64,000 nt of DNA from Sipunculus nudus. Lineage: Eukaryota; Annelida; Sipuncula; Golfingiida; Sipunculidae. The stretch spans positions 11,817,479 through 11,881,478 of the forward strand of contig CM049321.1 in assembly GCA_026874595.1 (NCBI GenBank). Reading direction: 5' to 3'. The translations under genes and the position numbers were made by a program. Below the pieces are notes generated by a model. That model was given only the letters and a program-made list of their open reading frames with translations. It did not search any database and was not told the DNA's origin. Positions 818-47,500 of this stretch are shown here, piece by piece. Positions within the stretch are counted from its first letter, which is position 1. The number at the start of each line of letters is the position of its first letter.

Positions 818-1130
818 TGGGAAAGAATTAAGAAAATGGGTCTCGGAATCGATATTGTCCCTTTTAGAAAATAGCAATATTTTAAATTTCGACTTTTATT
901 GAAAAATTTTGCCATTTTTATTTAGAATCCGGTTCACTAAGCGTCACTATTTTGTCGCCAAGAAACTTGTCTGCGTACCCATGGGTCATATTCGTGTGTA
1001 TTTGTAGAAATATGCTTCATTTCTTTAGTGTTTTCACCGTAAGCAAAGAATAAGCAAAGCGTAAGGAAAGTGTAAGCAAAGGAACTACATCTTCATAAAT
1101 TCTTTTTGTGAATAATTTCTCAAGACATAA

Positions 1131-1548
1131 TGTATTAGTTGACTAACCAGGAGCCAAATTATATCGGAAACGGTGCAAAACAGTAGATCAAATGAGAAAA
1201 AATTTAAAACAATGGGTCTCGAATTTAATATTATCCCTTTCATAAAATAGTAATATTTCATATTTTTACATTTATTGAAAGATTTTGCCTTTTATTTTTA
1301 GATTCCTGTTCACTTAGCGTCGCTATTTTGTCGCCAAGGAACTTGTCTGCGTACCCATGGGTCATATTCGTGTGTATTTGTAGAAAAATGCTTCATTTCT
1401 GTGGTGTTTTCTCAATAAGCAAAGCATAAGCATAACGCAAGCAATTTTTAAGCAAAATAGGCAAAACATAAGCAAAACGCAAGCAAATTGTAAGCAAAGG
1501 AACAATGTCTTCTTAAATTCTTTTTGCAACTATTTCCTGAGGACATAA
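1131..1548. repeat. Chimeric 418-bp monomer (A head, B2 body, A tail), unit 1
   Basis: It starts as A (gttgactaaccaggagcc, aaacagtagatcaaatgag) and switches near atgggtctcg (about 1212) to a B2 body. It ends with an A-type array and the tail gcaactatttcctgagg. It is 42 bp longer than normal because its 11-bp array has eight units instead of four (1416-1501). One of these is only 9 nt (1449-1457) and probably marks the join of two arrays. The following monomer is B, as its tail predicts. Confidence 0.85.
1416..1501. repeat. Expanded 11-bp microrepeat array (8 units)
   Basis: Eight consecutive units of taagcaaagca type: seven of 11 nt and one of 9 nt at 1449-1457. Ordinary monomers have four. 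The second half matches the distinctive array at about 2964-3005 (taggcaaaaca first unit), which suggests a fusion of two arrays. Confidence 0.85.
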
Positions 1549-2523
1549 TGTATTATTAGGCTTCCAGGGAGTCTAATCATGTCAAAAATAGTAGAAAATT
1601 GTAGATAAATTGGGAAAGAAATAAGAAAATGGGTCTCGAAATCGATATTATCCCTTTCAGAAAATAGCAATATTTCATATTTTGACTTTTCATTGAAAGA
1701 TTTTACCATTTTTATTTAGAATCCGGTTCACTAAGCATCACTGCTTTGTCGCCAAGAAACTTGTCTCCGTACCCATGGGTCATATTCGTGTGTATTTGTA
1801 GAAAAATGCTTCATTTCTGTGGTGTTTTCTTAATAAGCAAAGCATAAACAAAACGTAAGCAAATTGTAAGTAAAGTAACAATGTCTTCATAAATTCTTTT
1901 TGTAAATATTTTCTGGAGACATACTGTATAATTTGACTAACCCGGAGCCTAATTATATCGGAAACGGTGCAAAACAGTAGATCAAATGAGAAAAAAATAA
2001 AAAATGGGTCCCTATAACCCATAATATCTCTTATTGGAAATAGCAGTCTTTTACATTTCTAATATTGATTGAACGATAGTGCCCTTTATTTTTAGATTAA
2101 TGTTCACTAGAAGGGACCATTGTGTAGCCAGAGAATTAGTCTGCGTCCCTACGGGACATATTCGTGTGTATTTTTTTTAAAATGCTTCATTTCTGTGGTG
2201 TTTTCTCAATAAGCAAAGCATAAGCAAAACGCAAGCAAATTGTAAGCAAAGGAAAAATGTCTTCAAAAATTCTTTTTGCGACTATTTTCTGAGGATATAA
2301 TGAATTATTCGGGTTCCAGGGAGTCTAACCATGTCGGAAATAGTAGAAAATTGTAGATAACTTGGGAAAGAATTAAGAAAATGGGTCTCGTAATCGATAT
2401 TGTCCCTTTTAGAAAATTAGCAATATTTTATATTTCGACATTTTATTGAAAGATTTTGCCATTTTTATTTAGAATCCGGTTCACTAAGCGTCACTTTTTT
2501 GTCGCCAAGTATCTTGTCTGCGT

Positions 2524-2533
2524 ACCCATGGGT
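2524..2533. repeat. Palindrome in B monomer: ACCCATGGGT (example)
   Basis: A perfect 10-bp palindrome at the position equivalent to the A-monomer dyad. The bases differ from A on both arms, yet symmetry is kept. Most B monomers have it; some degenerate copies (for example acccaaaggat near 17681) do not. Confidence 0.75.
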
Positions 2534-2897
2534 CATATTCGAGTGTATTTGTAGAAAAATGCTTCATTTCTGTGGTGTTTTCAGCGTAAGCAAAGAATAA
2601 GCAAAGCGTAAGGAAAGTGTAAGCAAAGGAACTACATCTTCATAAATTCTTTTTGTGAATATTTTCTCAAGACATAATGAATTAGTTGACTAACCAGGAG
2701 CCTAATTATATCGGAAACGGTGCAAAACAGTAGATCAAATGAGAAAAAATTAAAAAATGGGTCCCTATAATCCATAATATCTCTTTTTGGAAATAGCAGT
2801 CTTTTACATTTCTAATATTGATTGAACGATGGTGCCCTTTATTTTTAGATTAATGTTCACTAGGAGGCACCATTGTGTAGCCAGGGAATTAGTCTGC

Positions 2898-2910
2898 GTC
2901 CCTACGGGAC
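2898..2910. repeat. Dyad in A monomer: GTCCC-TAC-GGGAC (example)
   Basis: A perfect 5-bp inverted repeat with a 3-nt spacer, just before catattcgtgtgt. It is present in most A monomers. Variants such as gtccttactggac and gtccctacggac still keep complementary arms. Function is unknown; it could be a protein site or a hairpin. Confidence 0.75.
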
Positions 2911-4357
2911 ATATTCGTGTGTATTTTTTTAAAAATGCTTCATTTCTGTGGTGTTTTCTCAATAGGCAAAACATAAGCAAAACGCAAGCAAATTGTAAGC
3001 AAAGGAACAATGTCTTCTTAAATTCTTTTTGCAACTATTTCCTGAGGACATAATGTATTATTAGGCTTCCAGGGAGTCTAATCATGTCGGAAGTAGTGGA
3101 AAATTGTAGATAAATTGGGAAAGAAATAAGAAAATGGGTCTCGAAATCGATATTATCCCTTTCAGAAAAAAGCAATATTTCATATTTCGACTTTTCATTG
3201 AAAGATTTTGCCATTTTTATTTAGAATCCGGTTGACTTAGCGTCACTATTTTGTCGCCAAGAAACTTGTCTGCGTACCCATGAGTCATATTCGTGTGTGT
3301 TTGTAGAAAAATGCTTCATTTCTGTGGTGTTTTCTCAATAAGCAATGCATAAGCAAAACTTAAGCAAATTGTAAGCAAAGGAACAATGTCTTCTTAAATT
3401 CTTTTTGTAAATATTTTTTCAAGACATAATGTATTAGTTGACAAACCAGGAGCCTAATTATATCGGAAACGGTGCAAAACAGTAGATCAAATGAGAAAAA
3501 ATTAAAAAATGGGTACCAATAATCCATAATATCTCTCATTTGAAAATAGCAGTCTTTTACATTTCTAATATTGATTGAACGATTGTGCCCTTTATTTTTA
3601 GATTAATGTTCCTTAGGAGGCACCATTGTGTAGCCAGGAAATTAGTATGCGTCCCTACGGGACATATTCGTGTGTATTTTTTTAAAAATGCTTCATTTCT
3701 GTGGTGTTTTCTCAATAAGCAAAGCATAAGCAAAACGCTAGCAAATTGTAGGCAAAGGAACAATGTCTTCTTAAATTCTTTTTGCAACTATTTTCTGAGG
3801 ACATAATGTATTATTAGGCTTCCAGGATGTCTTATCATGTCAAAAATAGTAGAAAATTGTAGATACATTGGGAAAGAAATAAGAAAATGGGTCTCGAAAT
3901 CGATATTATCCCTTTCAGAAAATAGCAATATTTCAAATTTGGACTTTTCATTGAAAGATTTTACCATTTTTATTTAGAATCCGGTTCACTAAGCATCACT
4001 GCTTTGTCGCCAAGAAACTTGTCTCCGTACCCATGGGTCATATTCGTGTGTATTTGTAGAAAAATGCTTCATTTCTGTGGTGTTTTCTTAATAAGCAAAG
4101 CATAAGCAAAACGTAAGCAAATTGTAAGTAAAGGAACTACATCTTCATAAATTCTTTTTGTAAATATTTTCTGGAGACATAATGTATAATTTGACTAACC
4201 CGGAGCCTAATTATATCGGAAACGGTGCAAAACAGTAGATCAAATGAGAAAAAAATAAAAAATGGGTCCCTATAACCCATAATATCTCTTATTGGAAATA
4301 GCAGTCTTTTACATTTCTAATATTGATTGAACGATAGTGCCCTTTATTTTTAGATTA

Positions 4358-7300
4358 ATGTTCACTAGAAGGGACCATTGTGTAGCCATAGAATTATTAT
4401 GGCGTATAAGGAACTCCTCTGCACGTGGCTTTACCTGGAGAAGTAATACTCCTATTATACAACGAAGACTAGACTTTATTCTTATTTCTAGCGAACTTAA
4501 TGCACATGTTCGCCATGTACAAATTTTGCCAGCCATAATTTCGGATCATTCAGCGGTGAGATGTACAATTAAATCACTTCATTATAATAAACATGGTCCT
4601 TCCTTTTGGAAGTTTAATGTTTCACTGCTGAATGACACTCTTTATGTCCAAGAGCTCAAAGATCACATAATACAATGGAAACAATATTATGATTTTTACA
4701 AGAAAGAGAAAGAATGGTGGGAGTTTTTAAAATTTATGATCAGAGATTTTACTATTCGTTTTTCTAAAAAGAAATTGCAAGAGGAGAGAGCCGAAGTACA
4801 GCATTTGGAAAAATTACTATCACAAGTAGAAACTAAAATTTCAGCAAACCAGTCAGAGAGTACAATGGAATATGAAAATTATCGACGAAAAATTGAGAAA
4901 TATTATGATCGTATTATAGAAGGCAACATAATTAGATCTAGGGTTAAATGGTATGAGGAAGGGGAACGAAATACAAAATATTTTATTAATTTGGAAAAAA
5001 TGAATAAAAAGAAGTCTACAATCAGAAAGCTATTGATAAATGGAGAGGAAAAAACTGATCAAAAAGATATAACAAATGAACTTAGACGATTTTATAAAGA
5101 AATGTATTCGCGAAAAAGTAAAATTACACGAATGGATTGTATGCATTTCTTATCTAACCTTAACATCACACGTTTAACGGAAATCGATTCAGCGAGCTGT
5201 GACGGGGAGATAACAAAATCTGAAGTTTTAAAGGCTTTACACTGCATGAAAAATAATAAGACACCAGGAAATGATGGCCTGCCAAAAGAATTCTATATTA
5301 CTTTCTTTGACATTTTAGGTGACGATTTGGTTAGGTGTTTGAATAAGTGTTTTGAAGAAGGAATATTAACTAATAGTCAAAGACAATCAGTTGTAACATT
5401 AATAGAAAAAACAGGCAAAGATAATCGTATATTAACATCATGGAGACCCATAAGTCTGTTGAATGTAGATTGTAAGATACTAAGTAAAATTTTAGCCGGC
5501 CGGATGAAAGTTTTTCTTCCAAAATTAATAGCGGATGACCAAACTGCTTTCGTCCAGGGAAGAAATATTAGTGACACAACGAGACTGATAAGTGACGTAA
5601 TAGAACATTGTAAAATAGAAAACAAGTCAGGGATCTTATTTGCAGTAGACTTCGCAGCAGCTTTTGATTCTATAGATCATACTTATTTATTTACAGTACT
5701 TGAAAAATTTGGATTTGGTGAAAATTTCATCAGATGGGTAAAAATTCTACATTATGATATCGAGAGTTGTATTATTAATAATGGTTATTCCACAGAGTAT
5801 CTCAAAGTTGCCACAGGTACAAGGCAGGGCGATCCGTTGGCCCCATATCTTTTCGTATTAGCAATCGAGATTTTAGCTACAATGATTCGTAACAATAGTA
5901 GGATCAGCGGTATAAACATTAATGGTGTTGAAATTAAGCAAGCGATATTTGCAGATGATACCACCTACTTTCTGAGAGATATCGCTTCAATGAAAGAAGT
6001 ATGTAATGTTATTGATAAATTCGGAGCCATATCATCGCTGTATATAAATCTGGGAAAATGTGAAGCAGCATTGCTTGGAAATCCGTCTATGACTGAATTA
6101 TTGGATCACATAAAATGGATCAACCTTAAGAATAAGGCAATTAAGATATTGGGAATCTCATTTACGTATGATAAGCAACTGTCATATACACTTAATTTTA
6201 ATGGTATTTTAGAGAAAATAAAGACCCTTTTTAATATTTGGAAACAACGAAACATGACATTTTTCGGCAGAAATACAATAATTAAATCATTAGGCATATC
6301 CAAAATATTGTACATAACAAACGTGCTGGAACCTCCTAGAGAATTTATAAAACTTGTTAAAAGTTGTATTGTGGACTTTATATGGTACGGCAGAAAACCC
6401 AAAATTAAATATGAAGTTATGATAAACTGTCAGAGAGAAGGAGGTATTGGACTACCGGATGTGGCATCGATAGTGGCATGTCAAAGATTAATGTGGATGA
6501 TAAAATTTATAAACGCTGGAGATGCCAAATATACTGCTGTGCCGAATTTGTATCTTAAGCAAATTGGTGGGGTAAAGAATATTACAGCAAATCTGGATAC
6601 CAGACGTATTGGTGACGATATTCCTGATTTCTATAAAAAATGCTTGAACGTATGGTCATTATATATGTCTGGTGAACCAAGTAACCCAGAAATAATGTTG
6701 TACCAAAGCGTGTGGAACAATAAATTTATAAAGATAGGAGGTAATTCTGTATATATGAAACATTTTGATGCAAAACGTGTGAAGTATGTACATGATCTTT
6801 ATAATACCAGCGGGAAAAAGAAAAGACTGGATGAAATTGTACCTCCGGATACTAATGAATACAAAATTTACTATGTACACTGGTTGTCCTTGATACATGC
6901 TATCCCGCAGAAGTGGCATGATTGTATTCGTACATTTGCAATGCAAGATAACTGTAGCCAGTTTTCTGAAAATATTAATTATGTTTCATTTAAAGATGTA
7001 ATACTAAATACGAATAAAGTGTCTTTCAAAGAGTTGTACAAAAGAATAATTCAGAGTAAAAAATCTGAGCCTTCAGCCAAAGTAAAATTACAGTCCAGAT
7101 TAAGATGTTTTGATTGGGAACAATCTGTTGCAAAGCTATATTCTATTACACTGGATATGCGTTTCCGTGAATTTCAGTTTAAATTGTTGCATAACGTTTT
7201 AGCAACAAGGGATAAGCTATACCTGTGGAAAGTAACTGATAATAAGCGATGTAATTACTGTTTTGTTGAGAAGGAAACAGTTGAACACTTATTATGTCAG

Positions 7301-7618
7301 TGTCATATTTCAATAACATTTTATCTGCATATAAAAACTTTTGTCAAGAGAGCTAATATCCATATGCCAGATCTAAACAAAGAGGTTATATACATGGTTG
7401 TGGGGAAACATGAACCGGTAATTATCGACATGTTATTATTAATTTATAAATATTTGGTATACAGAAATCGGATATTTCAGGTGATCCCTACCCTGGTACA
7501 GTTTGTGAATTGTTTAAAAAATACAGAATTGTTAGAAAGAAAGATTGCTGAGAAAAAACACACTTTGAATGTACATGAGAAAAAATGGAAGGAGTGTCTT
7601 ACCTTGTTAAGATATTAA
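4358..7618 (+). CDS. LINE ORF2 protein, endonuclease-truncated reverse transcriptase, copy 1 (satellite-LINE fusion frame)
   Basis: Open for 1,086 codons from the first ATG (4358). The first 13 codons are satellite; the LINE part starts at codon 14. Upstream frame extends to a GTG at 4337, not used here because this is eukaryotic DNA. Seen in the protein: the end of an APE-type endonuclease with FTWR (from residue 25), RLDFIL and the catalytic SDH (62-64); a charged, probably coiled-coil stretch (about 138-190); RSRVKWYEEGERNTKYF, typical of L1/Tx1-type ORF2; RT blocks TPGNDG, SWRPISLLN, FAVDF with catalytic Asp431, GTRQGDPLAPYLF, and FADD with Asp533-534; a zf-RVT type C-x2-C-x8-H-x4-C (965, 968, 977, 982). 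No internal stop or frameshift. Most of the endonuclease is missing, so autonomous retrotransposition is not expected; RT activity is possible but unproven. It has Ala at residue 707, where copies 2 and 3 have Glu. Confidence 0.9.
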   Translation: MFTRRDHCVAIELLWRIRNSSARGFTWRSNTPIIQRRLDFILISSELNAHVRHVQILPAIISDHSAVRCTIKSLHYNKHGPSFWKFNVSLLNDTLYVQELKDHIIQWKQYYDFYKKEKEWWEFLKFMIRDFTIRFSKKKLQEERAEVQHLEKLLSQVETKISANQSESTMEYENYRRKIEKYYDRIIEGNIIRSRVKWYEEGERNTKYFINLEKMNKKKSTIRKLLINGEEKTDQKDITNELRRFYKEMYSRKSKITRMDCMHFLSNLNITRLTEIDSASCDGEITKSEVLKALHCMKNNKTPGNDGLPKEFYITFFDILGDDLVRCLNKCFEEGILTNSQRQSVVTLIEKTGKDNRILTSWRPISLLNVDCKILSKILAGRMKVFLPKLIADDQTAFVQGRNISDTTRLISDVIEHCKIENKSGILFAVDFAAAFDSIDHTYLFTVLEKFGFGENFIRWVKILHYDIESCIINNGYSTEYLKVATGTRQGDPLAPYLFVLAIEILATMIRNNSRISGININGVEIKQAIFADDTTYFLRDIASMKEVCNVIDKFGAISSLYINLGKCEAALLGNPSMTELLDHIKWINLKNKAIKILGISFTYDKQLSYTLNFNGILEKIKTLFNIWKQRNMTFFGRNTIIKSLGISKILYITNVLEPPREFIKLVKSCIVDFIWYGRKPKIKYEVMINCQREGGIGLPDVASIVACQRLMWMIKFINAGDAKYTAVPNLYLKQIGGVKNITANLDTRRIGDDIPDFYKKCLNVWSLYMSGEPSNPEIMLYQSVWNNKFIKIGGNSVYMKHFDAKRVKYVHDLYNTSGKKKRLDEIVPPDTNEYKIYYVHWLSLIHAIPQKWHDCIRTFAMQDNCSQFSENINYVSFKDVILNTNKVSFKELYKRIIQSKKSEPSAKVKLQSRLRCFDWEQSVAKLYSITLDMRFREFQFKLLHNVLATRDKLYLWKVTDNKRCNYCFVEKETVEHLLCQCHISITFYLHIKTFVKRANIHMPDLNKEVIYMVVGKHEPVIIDMLLLIYKYLVYRNRIFQVIPTLVQFVNCLKNTELLERKIAEKKHTLNVHEKKWKECLTLLRY
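4391..4396. repeat. Target-site duplication, left copy
   Basis: GAATTA immediately before the LINE, repeated at 7914-7919 after the poly(A). Both copies correspond to positions 209-214 of the A monomer, so the six bases are present twice. It may be seven bases (AGAATTA), because the last A of the tail is ambiguous. The same pair flanks copies 2 and 3. Confidence 0.8.
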
Positions 7619-7913
7619 TAACTCCTGGTCATTATAACTGTGTTGGTAACTCACAAATGTTATATGTATTTTATGCACAGATTCACATACATTGGTATAT
7701 TTGTTAACTGTTACAGATTTTACTGCATTGTACTAGTTTTTGGAGATGTTGTTTAGGCTTGTTTATTGCCACTATATTGTAATTAAACAAATTTTTCAAT
7801 TAAAATATATAAATGGTGTCGATGATGAAAATATGTAGAGGAAGGAAAATATGTGAAGTATTGACTGAAACATCATAAAGAAGGAGAAAAGAAAAAAAAA
7901 AAAAAAAAAAAAA
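4397..7913 (+). mobile_element. 5'-truncated LINE (L1/Tx1-like non-LTR retrotransposon), copy 1
   Basis: An insertion of 3,517 bp interrupts an A monomer. Its left edge follows satellite gaatta (4391-4396). Its right edge is a run of 22 A (7892-7913), followed by a second gaatta (7914-7919) and the rest of the same monomer. Removing the element and one gaatta restores a 376-bp monomer (4183-4396 joined to 7920-8081). The element therefore has the hallmarks of target-primed reverse transcription: 3' poly(A), 5' truncation and a short target-site duplication. It contains the last part of the endonuclease domain, the full reverse transcriptase, a C-terminal zinc-knuckle region and a 3' UTR of about 270 bp with ATTAAA motifs at 7782 and 7799. 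There is no ORF1, 5' UTR or LTR. Confidence 0.93.
7619..7913 (+). other. LINE 3' UTR and poly(A) tail, copy 1
   Basis: About 270 bp of unique AT-rich sequence follow the TAA stop (7616-7618). Two ATTAAA motifs (7782-7787 and 7799-7804) could act as variant polyadenylation signals. The element ends in gagaaaag followed by 22 A. No satellite sequence lies between the stop codon and the tail. The same 3' end occurs in copies 2 and 3 with the same A count. Confidence 0.85.
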
Positions 7914-8456
7914 GAATTAGTCTGCGTCCCTACGGGACATATTCGTGTGTATTTTTTTAAAAATGCTTCATTTCTGTGGTGTTTTCTCAATAAGCAAAGC
8001 ATAAGCAAAACGCAAGCAAATTGTAAGCAAAGGAACAATGTCTTCATAAATTCTTTTTGTAAATATTTTCTAGAGACATAATGTATTAGTTGACTAACCA
8101 GGAGCCTAATTATATCGGAAACGGTGCAAAACAGTAGATCAAATGAGAAAAAAATAAAAAATGGGTCGCTATAATCCCTAACGTCTATTATTGGAAATAG
8201 CAGTCTTTTACATTTTTAATATGGATTGAACGATTGTTCCCTTTACTTTTAGATTAATGTTCACTAGGAGGCACCATTGTGTATCCAGGGAATTAGTCTG
8301 CGTCCCTACGGGACATATTCGTGTGTATTTTTTGAAAATGCTTCATTTCTGTGGTGTTTTCTCAATAAGCAAAGCATAAGCAAAACGCAAGCAAATTGTA
8401 AGCAAAGGAACAATGTCTTCTTCAATTATTTATGCGACTATTTTCTGAGGACATAA
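7914..8456. repeat. Right half of the LINE-hosting A monomer followed by a second A monomer
   Basis: 7914-8081 completes the interrupted monomer. Its tail is gtaaatattttctagagac, a form otherwise seen on B monomers, and it is followed directly by another A monomer (8082-8456) instead of a B. The same A-A arrangement is present after the LINE in units 2 and 3. It also occurs, without the LINE, at 47501-48252. Confidence 0.85.
8366..8409. repeat. 11-bp microrepeat array in an A monomer (example)
   Basis: Four units in register: taagcaaagca, taagcaaaacg, caagcaaattg, taagcaaagga. The period is exactly 11 bp. Nearly every A monomer carries this array about 50 bp before its end. Confidence 0.9.
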
Positions 8457-8831
8457 TGTATTATAAGGGTTCCAGGGAGTCTGATCATGTCGGAAATAGT
8501 GGAAAATTGTAGATAAATTGGGAAAGAAATAAGAAAATGGGTCTCGAAATCGATATTATCCCTTTTAGAAAATAGCAATATTTTATATTTAGACTTTTTA
8601 TTGAAAGATTTTGCCATTTTTATTTAGAATCCGGTTCACTAGGTGTCACTATTTTGTCGCCGAGAAACTTGTCTGCGTACCCATGGATCATATTCGTGTG
8701 TATTTGTAGAAAAATGCTTCATTTCTGTGACTTTTTACCGTATGCAAAGAATAAGCAAAGCTTAAGGAAAGTGTAAGCAAAGGAACTACATCTTCATAAA
8801 TTCTTTTTGTGAATATCTTCTAAAGACATAA

Positions 8832-9206
8832 TGTATTAGTTGACTAACCAGGAGCCTAATTATATCGGAAACGGTGCAAAACAGTAGATCAAATGAGAAA
8901 AAATTAAAAAATGGGTCCCTATAATCCATGATATCTCTTATTGGAAATAGCAGTCTTTTACATTTCTCATATTGATTGAACGATTGTGCCTTTTATTTTT
9001 AGATTAATGTTCACTATGAGGAACCATTGTGTAGCAAAGGAATTAGTCTGCGTCCTTACTGGACATAGTTGTGTGTATTTTTTTTAAATGCTTCATTTCT
9101 GTGGCGTTTTCTCAATAAGCATAGCATAGGCAAAAAGCAGGCAATTTGTAAGCAAAGAAACAATATCTTCATAAATTCTTTTTTCGACTATTTTCTGAGG
9201 ACATAA
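8832..9206. repeat. Example A-type satellite monomer (375 bp)
   Basis: Representative A monomer, read from tgtattag after the previous cataa. Order of landmarks: head gttgactaaccaggagcc; tatcggaaacggtgc; an AT-rich body with tttacatttct and attgattgaacgattg; caccattgtg-like segment (here aaccattgtg); a dyad in gtcc...ggac; the core gtgtgtattt and gcttcatttctgtgg; four 11-bp AAGCAAA-type repeats; and the tail cgactattttctgagg. This tail type is followed by a B monomer. Confidence 0.9.
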
Positions 9207-9577
9207 TGTATTATTAGGGTTCCAGGGGGTCTATTCATGTCGGAAATAGTGGAAAATTGTAGATAAATTGGGAAAGAAATAAGAAAATGGGTCTCGAAAT
9301 CGATATTATCCCTTTTAAAAAATAGCAATATTTTATATTTATACTTTTTATTGAAAGATTTTGCTTTTTTATTTAGAATCAGGTTCACTAAGCGTCACTA
9401 TTTTGTCTCCAAGATGTCTGCGTACCGAAAGGGCATATTCGTGTGTATTTGTGGAAAAATGCTTCATTTCTGTGGTGTTTTTACCGAAAGCAAAGAATAA
9501 GCAAAGCTTAATGAAAGTGTAAGCAAAGGAACCAAATCTTCATAAATTCTTTTTGTGAATATCTTCTAAAGACATAA
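9207..9577. repeat. Example B1-type satellite monomer (371 bp)
   Basis: Representative B1 monomer. Head agggttccagggggtct, then gtcggaaatagtggaaaattg, atgggtctcgaaatcgatat, an AT-rich body, ggttcactaagcgtcac, ttttgtctccaag, the shared core (catattcgtgtgtatttgtgg, gcttcatttctgtgg), an 11-bp repeat array and the tail gtgaatatcttctaaagac. The B family is alignable with A over its whole length but clearly diverged outside the core. This tail type is followed by an A monomer. Confidence 0.88.
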
Positions 9578-10237
9578 TGTATTAGTTGACTAACCAGGAG
9601 CCTAATTATATCGGAAACGGTGCAAAACAGTAGATCAAATGAGAAAAAATTAAAAAATGGGTCCATATAATCCATAACATCTCTTATTAGAAATAACAGT
9701 CTTTTACATTTCTAGTATTGATTGAACAATTGTTCCCTTTATTTTTAGATTAATGTTCACTAGGAGGCACCATTGTGTATTCAGGGAATTAGTCTGCGTC
9801 CCTACGGGACATATTCGTGTGTATTTTTTGAAAATGCTTCATTTCTGTGGTGTTTTCTCAATAAGCAAAGCATAAGCAAAACGCAAGCAAATTGTAAGCA
9901 AAGGAACAATGTCTTCTTAAATTTTTTTTGCGACTATGTTCCGAGGATATAATGTATTATTAGGGTTTCAGGGAGTCTAATCGTATCGGAAATAGTGGAA
10001 AATTGTAGATAAATTGGGAAAGAAATAAGAGAATGGGTCTCGAATTTAATATTATCCCTTTCATAAAATAGTAATATTTCATATTTTTACATTTTATTGA
10101 AAGATTTTGCCTTTTATTTTTAGATTCCTGTTCACTTAGCGTCGCTATTTTGTCGCCAAGAAACTTGTCTGCGTACCCATGGGTCAAATTCGTGTGTATT
10201 TGTAGAAAAATGCTTCATTTCTGTGGTGTTTTTACCG

Positions 10238-10281
10238 TAAGCAAAGAATAAGCAAAGCGTAAGGAAAGTGTAAGCAAAGGA
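10238..10281. repeat. 11-bp microrepeat array in a B monomer (example)
   Basis: Four units: taagcaaagaa, taagcaaagcg, taaggaaagtg, taagcaaagga. Same place and period as in A monomers, although the variable bases differ. Confidence 0.9.
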
Positions 10282-10704
10282 ACTATATCTTCATAAATTC
10301 TTTTTGTGAATATTTTCTCAAGACATAATGTATTATTTGACTAACCAGGAGCCTTATTATATCGGAAACGGTGCAAAACAGTAGATCAAATGAGAAAAAA
10401 ATTAAAAAATGGGTCCATATAATCCATAACATCTCTTATTAGAAATAACAGTCTTTTACATTTCTAGTATTGATTGAACAATTGTTCCCTTTATTTTTAG
10501 ATTAATGTTCACCAGGAGGCATCATTGTGTATCCAGGGAATTAGTCTGCGTCCCTACGGGGCATATTCGTGTGTATTTTTTAAAATGCTTCATTTCTGTG
10601 GTGTTTTCTCAAAAAGCAAAGCATAAGCAAAACGCAAGCAATTTGTAAGCAAAAAAAACAATATCTTCATAAATTCTCTTTGCGACTATTTTCTGAGGAC
10701 ATAA

Positions 10705-11080
10705 TGTATTATTAGGGTTCCAGGGAGTCTAATCGTGTCGGAAATAGTGGAAAATTGTAGATAAATTGGGAAAGATATAAGAAAATGGGTCTCGAATTTA
10801 ATATTATCCCTTTCATAAAATAGTAATATTTTATATTTTTACATTTTATTGAAAGACTTTGCCTTTTATTTTTAAATTCCTGTTGACTTAGCGTCACTAT
10901 TTTGTCGCCAAGGAACTTTTCTGCGTACCTATGGGTCATATTCGTGTGTATTTGTAGAAAAATGCTTCATTTCTGTGATGTTTTCACCGTAAGCAAAGAA
11001 TAAGCAAAGCGTTAGAAAAGTGTAAGCAAAGGAACTACATCTTCATCAATTCTTTTTGTGAATATTTTCTCAAGACATAA
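10705..11080. repeat. Example B2-type satellite monomer (376 bp)
   Basis: B2 shares the head and tail of B1 but has a different body: tctcgaatttaatattatcc, cataaaatagtaatatt, tttttacattttattg, and aaattcctgttgacttagcg. Other B2-bodied monomers start near 381, 9953, 12207, 18963, 49757, 55765, 56519, 57271 and 58022. B2 is thus a third recurrent sequence class in the array. Confidence 0.85.
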
Positions 11081-12478: not shown

Positions 12479-12490
12479 GGTGTTTTCACC
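12479..12490. repeat. Short inverted repeat GGTG-TTTT-CACC in B monomers (example)
   Basis: A 4-bp stem with a TTTT spacer directly before the 11-bp array. It is found in B monomers with the caccgtaagc sequence but not in A monomers, which have ggtgttttctcaat. Weak evidence of function. Confidence 0.5.
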
Positions 12491-37811: not shown

Positions 37812-40800
37812 TTATGGCGTATAAGGAACTCCTCTGCACGTGGCTTTACCTGGAGAAGTAATACTCCTATTATACAACGAAGACTAGACTTTATTCTTAT
37901 TTCTAGCGAACTTAATGCACATGTTCGCCATGTACAAATTTTGCCAGCCATAATTTCGGATCATTCAGCGGTGAGATGTACAATTAAATCACTTCATTAT
38001 AATAAACATGGTCCTTCCTTTTGGAAGTTTAATGTTTCACTGCTGAATGACACTCTTTATGTCCAAGAGCTCAAAGATCACATAATACAATGGAAACAAT
38101 ATTATGATTTTTACAAGAAAGAGAAAGAATGGTGGGAGTTTTTAAAATTTATGATCAGAGATTTTACTATTCGTTTTTCTAAAAAGAAATTGCAAGAGGA
38201 GAGAGCCGAAGTACAGCATTTGGAAAAATTACTATCACAAGTAGAAACTAAAATTTCAGCAAACCAGTCAGAGAGTACAATGGAATATGAAAATTATCGA
38301 CGAAAAATTGAGAAATATTATGATCGTATTATAGAAGGCAACATAATTAGATCTAGGGTTAAATGGTATGAGGAAGGGGAACGAAATACAAAATATTTTA
38401 TTAATTTGGAAAAAATGAATAAAAAGAAGTCTACAATCAGAAAGCTATTGATAAATGGAGAGGAAAAAACTGATCAAAAAGATATAACAAATGAACTTAG
38501 ACGATTTTATAAAGAAATGTATTCGCGAAAAAGTAAAATTACACGAATGGATTGTATGCATTTCTTATCTAACCTTAACATCACACGTTTAACGGAAATC
38601 GATTCAGCGAGCTGTGACGGGGAGATAACAAAATCTGAAGTTTTAAAGGCTTTACACTGCATGAAAAATAATAAGACACCAGGAAATGATGGCCTGCCAA
38701 AAGAATTCTATATTACTTTCTTTGACATTTTAGGTGACGATTTGGTTAGGTGTTTGAATAAGTGTTTTGAAGAAGGAATATTAACTAATAGTCAAAGACA
38801 ATCAGTTGTAACATTAATAGAAAAAACAGGCAAAGATAATCGTATATTAACATCATGGAGACCCATAAGTCTGTTGAATGTAGATTGTAAGATACTAAGT
38901 AAAATTTTAGCCGGCCGGATGAAAGTTTTTCTTCCAAAATTAATAGCGGATGACCAAACTGCTTTCGTCCAGGGAAGAAATATTAGTGACACAACGAGAC
39001 TGATAAGTGACGTAATAGAACATTGTAAAATAGAAAACAAGTCAGGGATCTTATTTGCAGTAGACTTCGCAGCAGCTTTTGATTCTATAGATCATACTTA
39101 TTTATTTACAGTACTTGAAAAATTTGGATTTGGTGAAAATTTCATCAGATGGGTAAAAATTCTACATTATGATATCGAGAGTTGTATTATTAATAATGGT
39201 TATTCCACAGAGTATCTCAAAGTTGCCACAGGTACAAGGCAGGGCGATCCGTTGGCCCCATATCTTTTCGTATTAGCAATCGAGATTTTAGCTACAATGA
39301 TTCGTAACAATAGTAGGATCAGCGGTATAAACATTAATGGTGTTGAAATTAAGCAAGCGATATTTGCAGATGATACCACCTACTTTCTGAGAGATATCGC
39401 TTCAATGAAAGAAGTATGTAATGTTATTGATAAATTCGGAGCCATATCATCGCTGTATATAAATCTGGGAAAATGTGAAGCAGCATTGCTTGGAAATCCG
39501 TCTATGACTGAATTATTGGATCACATAAAATGGATCAACCTTAAGAATAAGGCAATTAAGATATTGGGAATCTCATTTACGTATGATAAGCAACTGTCAT
39601 ATACACTTAATTTTAATGGTATTTTAGAGAAAATAAAGACCCTTTTTAATATTTGGAAACAACGAAACATGACATTTTTCGGCAGAAATACAATAATTAA
39701 ATCATTAGGCATATCCAAAATATTGTACATAACAAACGTGCTGGAACCTCCTAGAGAATTTATAAAACTTGTTAAAAGTTGTATTGTGGACTTTATATGG
39801 TACGGCAGAAAACCCAAAATTAAATATGAAGTTATGATAAACTGTCAGAGAGAAGGAGGTATTGGACTACCGGATGTGGCATCGATAGTGGAATGTCAAA
39901 GATTAATGTGGATGATAAAATTTATAAACGCTGGAGATGCCAAATATACTGCTGTGCCGAATTTGTATCTTAAGCAAATTGGTGGGGTAAAGAATATTAC
40001 AGCAAATCTGGATACCAGACGTATTGGTGACGATATTCCTGATTTCTATAAAAAATGCTTGAACGTATGGTCATTATATATGTCTGGTGAACCAAGTAAC
40101 CCAGAAATAATGTTGTACCAAAGCGTGTGGAACAATAAATTTATAAAGATAGGAGGTAATTCTGTATATATGAAACATTTTGATGCAAAACGTGTGAAGT
40201 ATGTACATGATCTTTATAATACCAGCGGGAAAAAGAAAAGACTGGATGAAATTGTACCTCCGGATACTAATGAATACAAAATTTACTATGTACACTGGTT
40301 GTCCTTGATACATGCTATCCCGCAGAAGTGGCATGATTGTATTCGTACATTTGCAATGCAAGATAACTGTAGCCAGTTTTCTGAAAATATTAATTATGTT
40401 TCATTTAAAGATGTAATACTAAATACGAATAAAGTGTCTTTCAAAGAGTTGTACAAAAGAATAATTCAGAGTAAAAAATCTGAGCCTTCAGCCAAAGTAA
40501 AATTACAGTCCAGATTAAGATGTTTTGATTGGGAACAATCTGTTGCAAAGCTATATTCTATTACACTGGATATGCGTTTCCGTGAATTTCAGTTTAAATT
40601 GTTGCATAACGTTTTAGCAACAAGGGATAAGCTATACCTGTGGAAAGTAACTGATAATAAGCGATGTAATTACTGTTTTGTTGAGAAGGAAACAGTTGAA
40701 CACTTATTATGTCAGTGTCATATTTCAATAACATTTTATCTGCATATAAAAACTTTTGTCAAGAGAGCTAATATCCATATGCCAGATCTAAACAAAGAGG

Positions 40801-41033
40801 TTATATACATGGTTGTGGGGAAACATGAACCGGTAATTATCGACATGTTATTATTAATTTATAAATATTTGGTATACAGAAATCGGATATTTCAGGTGAT
40901 CCCTACCCTGGTACAGTTTGTGAATTGTTTAAAAAATACAGAATTGTTAGAAAGAAAGATTGCTGAGAAAAAACACACTTTGAATGTACATGAGAAAAAA
41001 TGGAAGGAGTGTCTTACCTTGTTAAGATATTAA
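37773..41033 (+). CDS. LINE ORF2 protein, endonuclease-truncated reverse transcriptase, copy 3
   Basis: Third intact copy of the satellite-LINE fusion frame (1,086 codons from the satellite ATG). The predicted protein equals copy 2, including Glu707, and differs from copy 1 only there. Key residues remain: SDH of the endonuclease remnant, the catalytic Asp of FAVDF, the FADD aspartates and the C-x2-C-x8-H-x4-C motif near the C terminus. The family normally has a full APE endonuclease of over 200 residues upstream and often a separate ORF1 protein; both are absent. I infer a dead-on-arrival insertion that has not had time to decay. Confidence 0.9.
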   Translation: MFTRRDHCVAIELLWRIRNSSARGFTWRSNTPIIQRRLDFILISSELNAHVRHVQILPAIISDHSAVRCTIKSLHYNKHGPSFWKFNVSLLNDTLYVQELKDHIIQWKQYYDFYKKEKEWWEFLKFMIRDFTIRFSKKKLQEERAEVQHLEKLLSQVETKISANQSESTMEYENYRRKIEKYYDRIIEGNIIRSRVKWYEEGERNTKYFINLEKMNKKKSTIRKLLINGEEKTDQKDITNELRRFYKEMYSRKSKITRMDCMHFLSNLNITRLTEIDSASCDGEITKSEVLKALHCMKNNKTPGNDGLPKEFYITFFDILGDDLVRCLNKCFEEGILTNSQRQSVVTLIEKTGKDNRILTSWRPISLLNVDCKILSKILAGRMKVFLPKLIADDQTAFVQGRNISDTTRLISDVIEHCKIENKSGILFAVDFAAAFDSIDHTYLFTVLEKFGFGENFIRWVKILHYDIESCIINNGYSTEYLKVATGTRQGDPLAPYLFVLAIEILATMIRNNSRISGININGVEIKQAIFADDTTYFLRDIASMKEVCNVIDKFGAISSLYINLGKCEAALLGNPSMTELLDHIKWINLKNKAIKILGISFTYDKQLSYTLNFNGILEKIKTLFNIWKQRNMTFFGRNTIIKSLGISKILYITNVLEPPREFIKLVKSCIVDFIWYGRKPKIKYEVMINCQREGGIGLPDVASIVECQRLMWMIKFINAGDAKYTAVPNLYLKQIGGVKNITANLDTRRIGDDIPDFYKKCLNVWSLYMSGEPSNPEIMLYQSVWNNKFIKIGGNSVYMKHFDAKRVKYVHDLYNTSGKKKRLDEIVPPDTNEYKIYYVHWLSLIHAIPQKWHDCIRTFAMQDNCSQFSENINYVSFKDVILNTNKVSFKELYKRIIQSKKSEPSAKVKLQSRLRCFDWEQSVAKLYSITLDMRFREFQFKLLHNVLATRDKLYLWKVTDNKRCNYCFVEKETVEHLLCQCHISITFYLHIKTFVKRANIHMPDLNKEVIYMVVGKHEPVIIDMLLLIYKYLVYRNRIFQVIPTLVQFVNCLKNTELLERKIAEKKHTLNVHEKKWKECLTLLRY

Positions 41034-41328
41034 TAACTCCTGGTCATTATAACTGTGTTGGTAACTCACAAATGTTATATGTATTTTATGCACAGATTCA
41101 CATACATTGGTATATTTGTTAACTGTTACAGATTTTACTGCATTGTACTAGTTTTTGGAGATGTTGTTTAGGCTTGTTTATTGCCACTATATTGTAATTA
41201 AACAAATTTTTCAATTAAAATATATAAATGGTGTCGATGATGAAAATATGTAGAGGAAGGAAAATATGTGAAGTATTGACTGAAACATCATAAAGAAGGA
41301 GAAAAGAAAAAAAAAAAAAAAAAAAAAA
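37812..41328 (+). mobile_element. 5'-truncated LINE (L1/Tx1-like), copy 3
   Basis: Third copy, 14,458 bp after copy 2, with the same truncation point, flanking gaatta (37806-37811 and 41329-41334) and 22-A tail (41307-41328). It shares the 39892 A variant with copy 2 against copy 1. As with copy 2, identical junctions show that the element was carried along by satellite amplification. Confidence 0.93.
41034..41328 (+). other. LINE 3' UTR and poly(A) tail, copy 3
   Basis: Same 3' UTR as copies 1 and 2, closing with 22 A (41307-41328) and then satellite gaattagtctgcg. Confidence 0.85.
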
Positions 41329-44300
41329 GAATTAGTCTGCGTCCCTACGGGACATATTCGTGTGTATTTTTTTAAAAATGCTTCATTTCTGTGGTGTTTT
41401 CTCAATAAGCAAAGCATAAGCAAAACGCAAGCAAATTGTAAGCAAAGGAACAATGTCTTCATAAATTCTTTTTGTAAATATTTTCTAGAGACATAATGTA
41501 TTAGTTGACTAACCAGGAGCCTAATTATATCGGAAACGGTGCAAAACAGTAGATCAAATGAGAAAAAAATAAAAAATGGGTCGCTATAATCCCTAACGTC
41601 TATTATTGGAAATAGCAGTCTTTTACATTTTTAATATGGATTGAACGATTGTTCCCTTTACTTTTAGATTAATGTTCACTAGGAGGCACCATTGTGTATC
41701 CAGGGAATTAGTCTGCGTCCCTACGGGACATATTCGTGTGTATTTTTTGAAAATGCTTCATTTCTGTGGTGTTTTCTCAATAAGCAAAGCATAAGCAAAA
41801 CGCAAGCAAATTGTAAGCAAAGGAACAATGTCTTCTTCAATTATTTATGCGACTATTTTCTGAGGACATAATGTATTATAAGGGTTCCAGGGAGTCTGAT
41901 CATGTCGGAAATAGTGGAAAATTGTAGATAAATTGGGAAAGAAATAAGAAAATGGGTCTCGAAATCGATATTATCCCTTTTAGAAAATAGCAATATTTTA
42001 TATTTAGACTTTTTATTGAAAGATTTTGCCATTTTTATTTAGAATCCGGTTCACTAGGTGTCACTATTTTGTCGCCGAGAAACTTGTCTGCGTACCCATG
42101 GATCATATTCGTGTGTATTTGTAGAAAAATGCTTCATTTCTGTGACTTTTTACCGTATGCAAAGAATAAGCAAAGCTTAAGGAAAGTGTAAGCAAAGGAA
42201 CTACATCTTCATAAATTCTTTTTGTGAATATCTTCTAAAGACATAATGTATTAGTTGACTAACCAGGAGCCTAATTATATCGGAAACGGTGCAAAACAGT
42301 AGATCAAATGAGAAAAAATTAAAAAATGGGTCCCTATAATCCATGATATCTCTTATTGGAAATAGCAGTCTTTTACATTTCTCATATTGATTGAACGATT
42401 GTGCCTTTTATTTTTAGATTAATGTTCACTATGAGGAACCATTGTGTAGCAAAGGAATTAGTCTGCGTCCTTACTGGACATAGTTGTGTGTATTTTTTTT
42501 AAATGCTTCATTTCTGTGGCGTTTTCTCAATAAGCATAGCATAGGCAAAAAGCAGGCAATTTGTAAGCAAAGAAACAATATCTTCATAAATTCTTTTTTC
42601 GACTATTTTCTGAGGACATAATGTATTATTAGGGTTCCAGGGGGTCTATTCATGTCGGAAATAGTGGAAAATTGTAGATAAATTGGGAAAGAAATAAGAA
42701 AATGGGTCTCGAAATCGATATTATCCCTTTTAAAAAATAGCAATATTTTATATTTATACTTTTTATTGAAAGATTTTGCTTTTTTATTTAGAATCAGGTT
42801 CACTAAGCGTCACTATTTTGTCTCCAAGATGTCTGCGTACCGAAAGGGCATATTCGTGTGTATTTGTGGAAAAATGCTTCATTTCTGTGGTGTTTTTACC
42901 GAAAGCAAAGAATAAGCAAAGCTTAATGAAAGTGTAAGCAAAGGAACCAAATCTTCATAAATTCTTTTTGTGAATATCTTCTAAAGACATAATGTATTAG
43001 TTGACTAACCAGGAGCCTAATTATATCGGAAACGGTGCAAAACAGTAGATCAAATGAGAAAAAATTAAAAAATGGGTCCATATAATCCATAACATCTCTT
43101 ATTAGAAATAACAGTCTTTTACATTTCTAGTATTGATTGAACAATTGTTCCCTTTATTTTTAGATTAATGTTCACTAGGAGGCACCATTGTGTATTCAGG
43201 GAATTAGTCTGCGTCCCTACGGGACATATTCGTGTGTATTTTTTGAAAATGCTTCATTTCTGTGGTGTTTTCTCAATAAGCAAAGCATAAGCAAAACGCA
43301 AGCAAATTGTAAGCAAAGGAACAATGTCTTCTTAAATTTTTTTTGCGACTATGTTCCGAGGATATAATGTATTATTAGGGTTTCAGGGAGTCTAATCGTA
43401 TCGGAAATAGTGGAAAATTGTAGATAAATTGGGAAAGAAATAAGAGAATGGGTCTCGAATTTAATATTATCCCTTTCATAAAATAGTAATATTTCATATT
43501 TTTACATTTTATTGAAAGATTTTGCCTTTTATTTTTAGATTCCTGTTCACTTAGCGTCGCTATTTTGTCGCCAAGAAACTTGTCTGCGTACCCATGGGTC
43601 AAATTCGTGTGTATTTGTAGAAAAATGCTTCATTTCTGTGGTGTTTTTACCGTAAGCAAAGAATAAGCAAAGCGTAAGGAAAGTGTAAGCAAAGGAACTA
43701 TATCTTCATAAATTCTTTTTGTGAATATTTTCTCAAGACATAATGTATTATTTGACTAACCAGGAGCCTTATTATATCGGAAACGGTGCAAAACAGTAGA
43801 TCAAATGAGAAAAAAATTAAAAAATGGGTCCATATAATCCATAACATCTCTTATTAGAAATAACAGTCTTTTACATTTCTAGTATTGATTGAACAATTGT
43901 TCCCTTTATTTTTAGATTAATGTTCACCAGGAGGCATCATTGTGTATCCAGGCAATTAGTCTGCGTCCCTACGGGGCATATTCGTGTGTATTTTTTAAAA
44001 TGCTTCATTTCTGTGGTGTTTTCTCAAAAAGCAAAGCATAAGCAAAACGCAAGCAATTTGTAAGCAAAAAAAACAATATCTTCATAAATTCTCTTTGCGA
44101 CTATTTTCTGAGGACATAATGTATTATTAGGGTTCCAGGGAGTCTAATCGTGTCGGAAATAGTGGAAAATTGTAGATAAATTGGGAAAGATATAAGAAAA
44201 TGGGTCTCGAATTTAATATTATCCCTTTCATAAAATAGTAATATTTTATATTTTTACATTTTATTGAAAGACTTTGCCTTTTATTTTTAAATTCCTGTTG

Positions 44301-47300
44301 ACTTAGCGTCACTATTTTGTCGCCAAGGAACTTTTCTGCGTACCTATGGGTCATATTCGTGTGTATTTGTAGAAAAATGCTTCATTTCTGTGATGTTTTC
44401 ACCGTAAGCAAAGAATAAGCAAAGCGTTAGAAAAGTGTAAGCAAAGGAACTACATCTTCATCAATTCTTTTTGTGAATATTTTCTCAAGACATAATGTAT
44501 TAGTTGACTAACCCGGAGCCTATTTATATCGGAAACGGTGCAAAACAGTAGATCAAATGAGAAAAAAATTAAAAAATGGGTCCATATAATCCATAATATC
44601 TCTTATTGGAAATAGCAGTCTTTTACATTTCTAATATTGATTGAACGATTGTTCCCTTTATTTTTAGATTAATGTTCACTAGGAGGCACCATTGTGTAGC
44701 AAGGGAATTAGTCTGCGTCCCTACGGGACATATTCGTGTGTTTTTGCTGAAAAATGCTTCATATCTGTGGTGTTTTCTCAATAAGCAAAGCATAAGCAAA
44801 ACGCAAGCAAATTGTAAGCAAAGAAACAATAACTTCACAAATTCTTTTTGCGACTATTTTCTGAGGACATAATGTATTATTAGGGTTCCAGGGAGTCTAA
44901 TGTCGGAAATAGTAGAAAATTGTAGATAAATTGGGAAAGAAATATGAAAATGGGTCTCGAAATCGATATTATCCCTTTTAGAAAATAGCAATATTTTATA
45001 TTTCGACTTTTTATTGAAAGTTTTTGCCATTTTTATTTAGAATCCGATTCACTAAGCGTCACTATTTTGTCGCCAAGAAACTTGTCTGCGTACCCATGGG
45101 TCATATTCGTGTGTATTTGTAGAAAAATGCTTCACTTCTGTGGTGTTTTCTCAATAAACAAAGCATAAGCAAAACGTAAGCAAATTGTAAGCAAAGGAAC
45201 AGTGTCTTCATAAATTCTTTTTGTAAATATTTTCTAGAGACATAATGTATTATTTGACTAACCCGGAGCCTAATGATATCGGAAACGGTACAAAACAGTA
45301 GATCAATTGATAAAAAATGTAAAAAAGGGTCCCTATAATCCCTAACATCTCTTATTGGAAATAGCAATCTTTTACATTTCTAATATTGATTGAACGATTG
45401 TTCCCTTTACTTTTAGATGAATGTTCACTAGGAGGCACCATTGTGTAGCTAGGGAAATAGTCTGAGTCCCTACGGGACATATTCGTGTGTATTTTTTTGA
45501 AAATGCTTCATTTCTGTGGTGTTTCCTCAATAAGCAAAGCATAAGCAAAACGCAAGCAAATTGTAAGCAAAGGAAAATTGACTTCATAAATTCTTTTTGC
45601 GACTATTTTCTGAGGATATAATGTATTATTAGGGTTCCAGGGAGTCTAATCGTATCGGAAAGAGTGGACAATTGTAGATAGATAGGGAAGGAAATAAGAA
45701 AATGGGTCTCGAATTTAATATTATCCCTTTCAGAAAATAGTAATATTTTATATTTTTACATTTTATTGAAAGATTTTGCTTTTTATTTTTAGATTCCTGT
45801 TGACTTAGCGTCACTATTTTGTCGCCAAGGAACTTTTCTGCGTTCCTATGGGTCATATTCGTGTGTATTTGTAGAAAAATGCTTCATTTCTGTGGTGTTT
45901 TCACCGTAAGCAAAGAAAAAGCAAATCGTAAGGTAGGTGTAAGCAAAGGAACTACATCATCATAAACTCTTTGAGTGAATATTTTCTCAAGACATAATGT
46001 ATAAGTTGACTAACCCGGAGCCTAATTATATCGGAAGCGGTGCAAAACAGTAGATCAAATGAGAAAAAATTAAAAAATGGGTCCATATAATCCATAACAT
46101 CTCTTATTGGAAATAGCAGTCTTTTACATTTCTAATATTGATTGAACGATTGTTCCAGTTAATTTTAGATTAATGTTCACTAGGAGGCACCATTGTGTAG
46201 GAAGGGAATTAGTCTGCGTCCCTACGGACATATTCGTGTGTATTTTTTTAAAATGCTTCATTTCTGTGGTGTTTTCTCAATAAGCAAAGCATAAGCAAAA
46301 CGCAAGCAAATTGTAAGCAAAGGAACAATGTCTTCTTAAATTTTTTATGCGACTATTTTCTGAGGACATAATGTATTATTAGGGTTCCAAAGAGTCTAAT
46401 CATGTCGGAAATAGTGGAAAATTGTAGATAAATTGGGAAAGAAATAAGAAAATGGGTCTCGAAATCGATATTATCCTTTTTAGAAAATAGCAATATTTTA
46501 TATTTAGACTTTTTATTGAAAGATTTTGCCATTTTTATTTAGAATCCGGTTCACTAAGTGTCACTATTTTGTCGTCGAGAATCTTGTCTGCGTACCCAAA
46601 GGATCATATTCGTGTGTATTTGTAGAAAAATGCTTCATTTCTGTGACGTTTTCACCATATGCAAAGAATAAGCAAAGCTTAAGGAAAGTGTAAGCAAAGG
46701 AACTACATCTTCATAAATTCTTTTTGTGAATATCTTCTAAAGACATAATGTATTAGTTGACTAACCAGGAGCCTAATTATATCGGAAACGGTGCAAAACA
46801 GTAGATCAAATGAGAAAAAATTAAAAAATGGGTCCATATAATCCATAATATCTCTTTTTGGAAATAGCAGTCTTTTACATTTCTCATATTGATTGAACGA
46901 TTGTGCCCTTTATTTTTAGATCAATGTTCACTATGAGACACCATTGTGTAGCAAAGGAATTAGTCTGCGTCCTTACTGGACATATTTGTGTGTATTTTTT
47001 TTTAAATGCTTCATTTCTGTGGTGTTTTCTCAATAAGCAAAGCATAGGCAAAACGCAGGCAATTTGTAAGCAAAGAAACAATATCTTCATAAATTATTTT
47101 TTCGACTATTTTCTGAGGACATAATGTATTATTAGGGTTCCAGGGGGTCTATTCATGTCGGAAATAGTGGAAAATTGTAGATAAATTGGGAAAGAAATAA
47201 GAAAATGGGTCTCGAAATCGATATAATCCCTTTTAAAAAATAGCAATATTTTATATTTCGACTTTTTATTGAAAGATTTTGCCATTTTTATTTAGAATCC

Positions 47301-47500
47301 GGTTCACTAAGCGTCACTATTTTGTCCCCAAGAAACTTGTCTGCGTACCGATAGGTCATATTCGTGTGTATTTGTGGAAAAATGCTTCATTTCTGTGGTA
47401 TTTTTACCGTAAGCAAAGAATAAGCAAAGCGTAAGGAAAGTGTAAGCAAAGGAACTATATCTTCATAAATTCTTTTTGTGAATATTTTCTCAAGACATAA
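41329..47500. repeat. Satellite of unit 3 right of LINE copy 3
   Basis: A/B monomers matching 26871-33042 of unit 2. From about 44998 it carries several variants not seen in units 1 and 2. No gene is visible. Confidence 0.88.

What the first reader, a model, noticed from the sequence alone, without database searches (positions are those of the whole stretch)
818..47500. A retrotransposon fixed inside a 29-monomer satellite higher-order repeat
The LINE occurs three times with the same truncation point, target-site duplication and satellite neighbours, so it has become part of the repeating unit of the satellite. Higher-order units of this length (14.46 kb, 29 monomers plus LINE) built from a roughly 752-bp A-B dimer are unusual. 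The LINE is the only non-satellite sequence in the unit.
Basis: partly seen in the sequence, partly recalled or inferred. Interest (0 to 1): 0.75.

Follow-up and report, generated by a model that had tools for sequence, protein, structure and literature searches.

The report
Jumping gene copied with satellite DNA
A jumping gene landed once in a long satellite DNA array and was then copied along with the surrounding repeats until four near-identical copies sat within about 60 kb, a clear but local example of a known process.

Summary
Three 3,516-bp LINE copies (window 4397-7912, 23354-26869, 37812-41327) share 5' truncation point, target-site duplication and satellite neighbours, and differ by 0-1 base. 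The unit is not constant: LINE-to-LINE distance is 18,957 bp (41 monomers), then 14,458 bp (29 monomers), because a 12-monomer, 4.5-kb block is doubled in the first unit. A search of the assembly (up to 3 mismatches) found four 5' junctions, all on C16. The fourth, upstream of the window, is an older duplicate: 11-12 LINE differences, about six closely matching monomers. In 234 kb read of a roughly 340-kb array the LINE is the only non-satellite insert, but strong local periods vary (7, 13, 17, 18, 21, 24, 29, 41 monomers), so the 29-mer is one young patch of about 2.9 copies, not the array's unit. Best explanation: one L1-like insertion, an early duplication, then recent homology-based unequal exchange that carried the LINE along. 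It is a well-resolved new member of a known kind, useful as a clock inside a satellite array. Read support could not be checked.

The parts
4397..7912 (+). LINE copy 2 of 4 (copy 1 lies upstream of the window): 5'-truncated L1-like element with poly(A) tail; frame open over 1,073 codons (end of endonuclease region, RT, C-terminal zinc finger)
23354..26869 (+). LINE copy 3 of 4, 1 mismatch to copy 2
37812..41327 (+). LINE copy 4 of 4, 0 differences to copy 3 over 3,494 aligned bases, 1 mismatch to copy 2
4390..4396 (+). Left target-site duplication AGAATTA of copy 2 (the right copy follows the A-tract); 7 bp, or 6 if the first A belongs to the tail
826..19782 (+). Unit U2: 41 monomers + LINE (18,957 bp)
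19783..34240 (+). Unit U3: 29 monomers + LINE (14,458 bp)
34241..47506 (+). Unit U4: incomplete third unit with LINE (13,266 of 14,458 bp)
8313..12812 (+). 12-monomer block, first copy within U2 (4.5 kb)
12813..17312 (+). 12-monomer block, second copy within U2; six substitutions in its first monomer mark the exchange point
1780..2155 (+). LINE-free monomer closest to the LINE-bearing one (98.1%); single AGAATTA, used as empty-site comparison (counterparts at 20736 and 35194, 97.9%)
7937..8312 (+). Monomer directly 3' of the LINE, slightly more B-like over its first 94 bp and A-like after; with it the A-B alternation breaks (AA). The same monomer occurs without a LINE at 47732 (99.5%)
1..64000 (+). 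Part of a roughly 340-kb array of about 376-bp monomers (C16 about 11.567-11.908 Mb), on the + strand in 8 of 8 satellite-positive probes

Best explanation
One L1-like LINE, truncated at its 5' end during target-primed reverse transcription, inserted once into an A-type monomer of a satellite array on C16, leaving a 6-7 bp target-site duplication and a poly(A) tail. That LINE-bearing stretch was later copied inside the array by exchange between misaligned satellite repeats, in two phases: an older event that separated the copy upstream of the window from the others, and a recent tandem amplification that gave the three window units. The first window unit also carries a second copy of a 12-monomer block. 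The LINE is a passenger. Shown: one shared junction, TSD, empty-site comparison, two divergence levels, edges that keep the 376-bp register. Inferred: target-primed reverse transcription, that the exchange was unequal crossing-over or break-induced replication, and the order of events.
For: The 46-bp 5' junction was found exactly 4 times in the assembly, 0 mismatches, all within 55.4 kb of C16. Removing LINE plus one TSD leaves a 376-bp monomer in 4 of 4 copies, and LINE-free monomers about 98% identical carry the site once. In a tree of the 4 copies and 12 other long copies the four group together (support 0.986); they differ by 0-1 among copies 2-4 and 11-12 to copy 1 over 3,494 bp, by 20-33 to 10 of the 12 others and by 91-94 to the other two. 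U2 vs U3: 9 substitutions and 2 single-base indels in about 14.4 kb; U3 vs U4: 10 substitutions and 1 indel in about 13.0 kb. Monomers at six breakpoint positions are 372-376 bp long, so the register was kept. 12 of 12 other long copies have no satellite match in the fetched stretches, so the element is not satellite-targeted.
Against: Read-level support could not be checked, so a false duplication of a near-identical unit is not excluded. U4 stops 1.2 kb short and the flanks of copy 1 match closely for only about six monomers, so a simple crossover series does not explain everything; later exchange or conversion has to be added. The excess of satellite over LINE substitutions between copy 1 and the others is modest (18 of 2,266 against 11 of 3,516, Fisher p = 0.013, unplanned test), and the polarity of most changes is unresolved.
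Confidence: 0.9

Rival explanations
1. Independent insertions of a site-specific LINE into the same position of several monomers (as R2 or satellite-targeted LINEs do).
For: A LINE lineage that prefers two sites in a satellite monomer is described in Cuscuta, one site being TTCTA (passages of PMC8091179). The lower-strand nick deduced here is TTCT/A in the filled monomers (inference), though TTCT/C in the LINE-free ones.
Against: Four identical 5' truncation points; shared flanking monomers, whole units for copies 2-4 and six monomers at about 99% for copy 1; 12 of 12 other long copies lie in DNA without satellite match; only four LINE-sized intervals in 234 kb read.
Confidence: 0.02
2. Assembly artefact: one or two LINE units, or two haplotypes, were joined into three tandem units.
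For: U2-U4 are 99.9% identical and no reads can be inspected here.
Against: 27 variable columns among the aligned units, counting both 12-mer copies of U2, and an extra 4.5-kb block in U2. The upstream copy, with 11-12 LINE differences and other neighbours, is clearly separate.
Confidence: 0.08
3. A true, established composite satellite: the 29-monomer + LINE unit is the homogenised unit of this chromosome's array.
For: Tandem, head-to-tail, 99.9% identical units in the window.
Against: Only 2.9 copies, unequal unit length, other periods elsewhere in the array and no further junction found in the assembly.
Confidence: 0.03

Closest known systems
Transposons duplicated after integration within satellite higher-order repeats (e.g. 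ATHILA in Arabidopsis centromeres; recalled, Wlodzimierz et al. 2023 is not held)
   Same: One insertion plus flanking satellite copied locally by array exchange (as recalled)
   Different: Here a 5'-truncated LINE, not an LTR element; 2.9 tandem copies plus one older copy; centromere status of the array unknown
CUS-TR24 satellite with L1-CS LINEs, Cuscuta europaea (PMC8091179, passages read)
   Same: L1-type LINEs inside satellite arrays, with segmental duplications of the loci
   Different: There, recurrent targeted insertions of several elements that fragment the satellite; here, one insertion in 234 kb read, multiplied with its flanks
Compound satellites such as Sobo of Solanum bulbocastanum (as described in PMC8091179; original not read)
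   Same: Retroelement-derived and tandem-repeat DNA joined in one repeating unit
   Different: Those monomers are described as highly homogenised throughout the genome; here the composite unit is local and variable in length

Membership tests
L1-clade LINE (non-LTR retrotransposon) | Reverse transcriptase related to L1 ORF2p | tested here: met
   PF00078 8.8e-36 and zf-RVT 7.1e-07; best solved relative is LINE-1 ORF2p, E 1.7e-82, ahead of R2 at 2.2e-24. No clade tree was built.
L1-clade LINE (non-LTR retrotransposon) | 5' truncation, poly(A) tail, target-site duplication | tested here: met
   Truncated relative to family members that share about 1,360 bp more 5'; A-tract and AGAATTA TSD
L1-clade LINE (non-LTR retrotransposon) | AP-like endonuclease domain and ORF1 | tested here: inconclusive
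   The window copies start inside the endonuclease region: the alignment begins at residue 191 of L1 ORF2p. ORF1 was not examined.
Satellite higher-order repeat | Ordered multi-monomer unit repeated head to tail, high identity between units and low identity between neighbouring monomers | tested here: met
   Neighbouring monomers 76% identical on average; units 99.9%
Satellite higher-order repeat | Constant unit that makes up the array | tested here: not met
   41 versus 29 monomers per unit, 2.9 copies, other periods elsewhere
Site-specific (satellite-targeted) LINE | Repeated independent insertion into the satellite | tested here: not met
   One junction type only; 12 of 12 fetched long copies outside the array without satellite match
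Centromeric satellite | Association with CENP-A | not testable with these tools
   No chromatin data. The CENP-B box consensus (recalled) has 0 matches in the window at up to 3 mismatches, 0.29 expected by chance.

The most novel reading that the evidence does not exclude
The LINE does more than ride along. As the only long stretch of non-satellite homology, lying at the A-B phase break of each unit, it pins misaligned repeats together and steers exchange, so that a composite satellite (29 monomers + LINE) is being born here. For it: close identity between copy 1 and the other copies is centred on the LINE and falls off on both sides. Against it: the same phase break occurs at 47732 without a LINE, and other patches of the array amplified without one.
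Probability: 0.12. Interest if true: 0.6.

Novelty: new member of a known kind. Interest (0 to 1): 0.36.

Why it matters
Exchange inside satellite arrays is hard to date because every monomer resembles every other. A single LINE insertion, copied in two phases, marks corresponding units without ambiguity. It gives an internal clock (LINE differences) next to satellite that can also be rewritten by conversion, so rates of duplication and conversion can be compared at one locus and across individuals.

Tried and rejected
Independent insertion, satellite-targeted insertion and an array-wide 29-mer unit were tested and rejected. The same LINE family in clusters on C15 (5 copies) and C8 (2 copies) looked like further satellite captures; the fetched loci share non-satellite flanks, so they are segmental duplications. 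An 887-bp spacing at C16:11786647 looked like a second insertion but contains an inverted satellite piece of about 475 bp. A CENP-B box was not found. A default megablast self-comparison merged units and was replaced by monomer-by-monomer comparison. Literature: ten searches, several listings capped; no title or abstract start that I saw describes this locus. As the organism is unknown, this says little about whether its satellite is in print.

Not done: read coverage, CENP-A mapping, relatives, a genome-wide search of the 3' junction, reading of the array's first 100 kb (11.567-11.667 Mb; only pattern hits there). Shorter or split LINE matches (for example on C1, C2, C10, C12) were not fetched.

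Full report
WHAT IS THERE. The window is C16:11817479-11881478 of a 1.43-Gb unnamed assembly. Apart from the three LINEs it is satellite, with monomers of about 376 bp. Anchored decomposition of the window plus 50 kb of flanks gave 266 anchors. The only spacings outside 370-384 bp were four LINE-bearing monomers (3,899-3,901 bp) and three of 418 bp, which correspond to a 42-bp internal duplication. Neighbouring monomers are on average 76% identical and second neighbours 88%. Two classes, A and B, have 91% and 90% identity within and 75% between.

THE LINE COPIES. Three copies of 3,516 bp lie at 4397-7912, 23354-26869 and 37812-41327. Relative to the first, the second and third have 1 mismatch each, and the copy upstream of the window at C16:11799918 has 12. 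Over 3,494 aligned bases copies 3 and 4 show no difference. The 46-bp 5' junction was searched in the whole assembly with up to 3 mismatches: 4 matches, all exact, at C16:11799892, 11821849, 11840806 and 11855264; the pattern read backwards gave 0. Spacings are therefore 21,957, 18,957 and 14,458 bp, or 49, 41 and 29 monomers. The 3' junction could not be searched in the form I asked for.

ONE INSERTION. In 4 of 4 copies the element is preceded by AGAATTA and followed, after the A-tract, by AGAATTAGTCTGCG; removing it with one TSD leaves a 376-bp monomer. The A-tract of copy 1 is 2 bases longer. LINE-free monomers at 1780, 20736 and 35194, about 98% identical to the LINE-bearing one, carry the site once. 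Relative to other family members, which share about 1,360 bp more on the 5' side, the four copies break at the same base. The 1,073-codon open frame matches RVT_1 (8.8e-36) and zf-RVT (7.1e-07), and its best solved relative is LINE-1 ORF2p, aligned from residue 191 (1.7e-82). Frames of copies 2-4 are open over 1,073 codons; copy 1 is interrupted (longest open stretch 753).

NOT SATELLITE-TARGETED. A whole-genome search with the LINE gave 52 matches from 40 scored of 754 candidates, a lower bound. The 12 copies outside the array that match in one piece over more than 3.4 kb at 97-99% were all fetched; 12 of 12 show no satellite match in the fetched stretches of 4-10 kb. Shorter and split matches were not fetched. 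Five of the 12 lie on C15 (53.37-53.56 Mb) and share their flanks, as do two on C8 (10.70-10.73 Mb): segmental duplications. Two of the C15 stretches, 96.9 kb apart, are 99.8% identical over 9.9 kb.

THE UNITS. Monomer typing and monomer-by-monomer comparison show units U2, U3 and U4. U2 has the 12-monomer block twice, U3 and U4 once; U4 lacks the last 1.2 kb. In the alignment of the units, with the two 12-mer copies of U2 as separate rows, 27 columns vary; 6 of these lie in the first monomer of the second 12-mer copy. U2 (first 12-mer copy) vs U3 differ by 9 substitutions and 2 single-base indels, U3 vs U4 by 10 and 1; one variable column is in the LINE. Monomers at the breakpoints (611, 12813, 17313, 19571, 34028, 47356) are 372-376 bp long, so exchanges kept the repeat register, as homologous exchange would and random end joining would not.

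WHY 29 IS ODD. Within 826-47506 the A-B alternation breaks only at the three LINEs and at 47356. The monomer directly 3' of the first window LINE is slightly more B-like over its first 94 bp (93-94% against 89-90%) and A-like after. The same monomer lies at 47732 with no LINE in front of it (99.5% identical). So the phase break can exist without the LINE; whether it came first is not settled.

OLDER COPY. The upstream copy is close to copy 2 only from three monomers before to two after the LINE (98.7-99.2%; its LINE-bearing monomer is 99.7% identical to those of U3 and U4). The next monomers on either side drop to 96.6% and 95.0%, then 92.0% and 89.3%, and lower on the left. The third monomer after the LINE is closest not to the LINE units but to the LINE-free stretch right of U4 (48484, 99.2%), so this part has been reshuffled. 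Fixed substitutions between copy 1 and copies 2-4 are 11 of 3,516 in the LINE and 18 of 2,266 in satellite (Fisher p = 0.013; unplanned). Of 21 satellite substitutions between copies 1 and 2, 4 have both alleles elsewhere in the region, two of them in one short tract private to U2; a random mutation meets an existing 21-mer in 113 of 1,985 trials. This fits some conversion from other monomers, but for most sites ancestral state and conversion cannot be told apart.

THE ARRAY. Probes of 0.5 kb find satellite in 8 of 8 tested places from 11.670 to 11.905 Mb, in 0 of 4 from 11.540 to 11.566 Mb and in 0 of 8 from 11.910 to 12.050 Mb; pattern hits of the array start at 11.568 Mb. The array is thus about 340 kb. 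In 234 kb read (11667479-11901478) the LINE is the only non-satellite insert; one other break contains an inverted satellite piece of about 475 bp. The best local period (lags 1-49 tried) in 23 successive bins of 26 monomers is 22, 41, 13, 10, 21, 21, 9, 13, 30, 7, 18, 3, 15, 49, 3, 41, 29, 46, 44, 17, 2, 24, 2; of these only 13 (first time), 21 (first time), 7, 18, 41 (second time), 29, 17 and 24 reach 94%. The 41- and 29-monomer bins are the LINE patch. It is one of several local amplifications.

MECHANISM AND CONFIDENCE. One target-primed insertion, an early duplication, a recent tandem amplification (0.9 for this outline). Unequal crossing-over and break-induced replication cannot be separated here. 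The main practical doubt is the assembly. No absolute date is given: no rate for this organism is known to me.

NOVELTY. Transposons joined to or copied with satellite are known: Cuscuta LINE-satellite loci and compound satellites such as Sobo (passages of PMC8091179), and ATHILA in Arabidopsis (recalled; not held). This is a new, well-resolved member. Papers seen: passages of PMC8091179, PMC12046899 and PMC11168930; abstract, start of the text and one passage of PMC11062924, of which none but PMC8091179 is used as evidence; other papers as search listings only.

Noticed in passing
C15:53367690-53564680 (L006, L007, L008, L036, L037): Five copies of the same LINE family alternate at about 38 and 58.6 kb: what looks like a 97-kb tandem segmental duplication with two LINEs per unit, no satellite match in the fetched stretches.
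   Followed up: partly
C8:10703820-10734390 (L009, L010): Two LINE copies 27 kb apart in stretches 99.3% identical over 8.5 kb, without satellite match: another segmental duplication carrying this LINE.
   Followed up: partly
C13:70798232-70912177 and C10:78901546-79231231 (L050, L051): The same satellite family (5 kb sampled each; closest monomers about 77-88% identical to the C16 array) has listed hits near contig ends (C13 is 70.94 Mb, C10 79.64 Mb long) but the C16 array is interior. Listings were capped.
   Followed up: partly
C16:11786940-11787400 (L049/L001): A satellite piece of about 475 bp is inverted inside an otherwise one-strand array, possibly a template-switch scar.
   Followed up: partly
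window 1362-1779, 20318-20735, 34776-35193: One 418-bp monomer per unit: a 42-bp internal duplication of the AAGCAAA-rich subrepeat.
   Followed up: partly
window about 52600-64000: Right of the LINE units another local repeat of about 17 monomers (6.38 kb) begins; a BB phase break lies at 57878.
   Followed up: no
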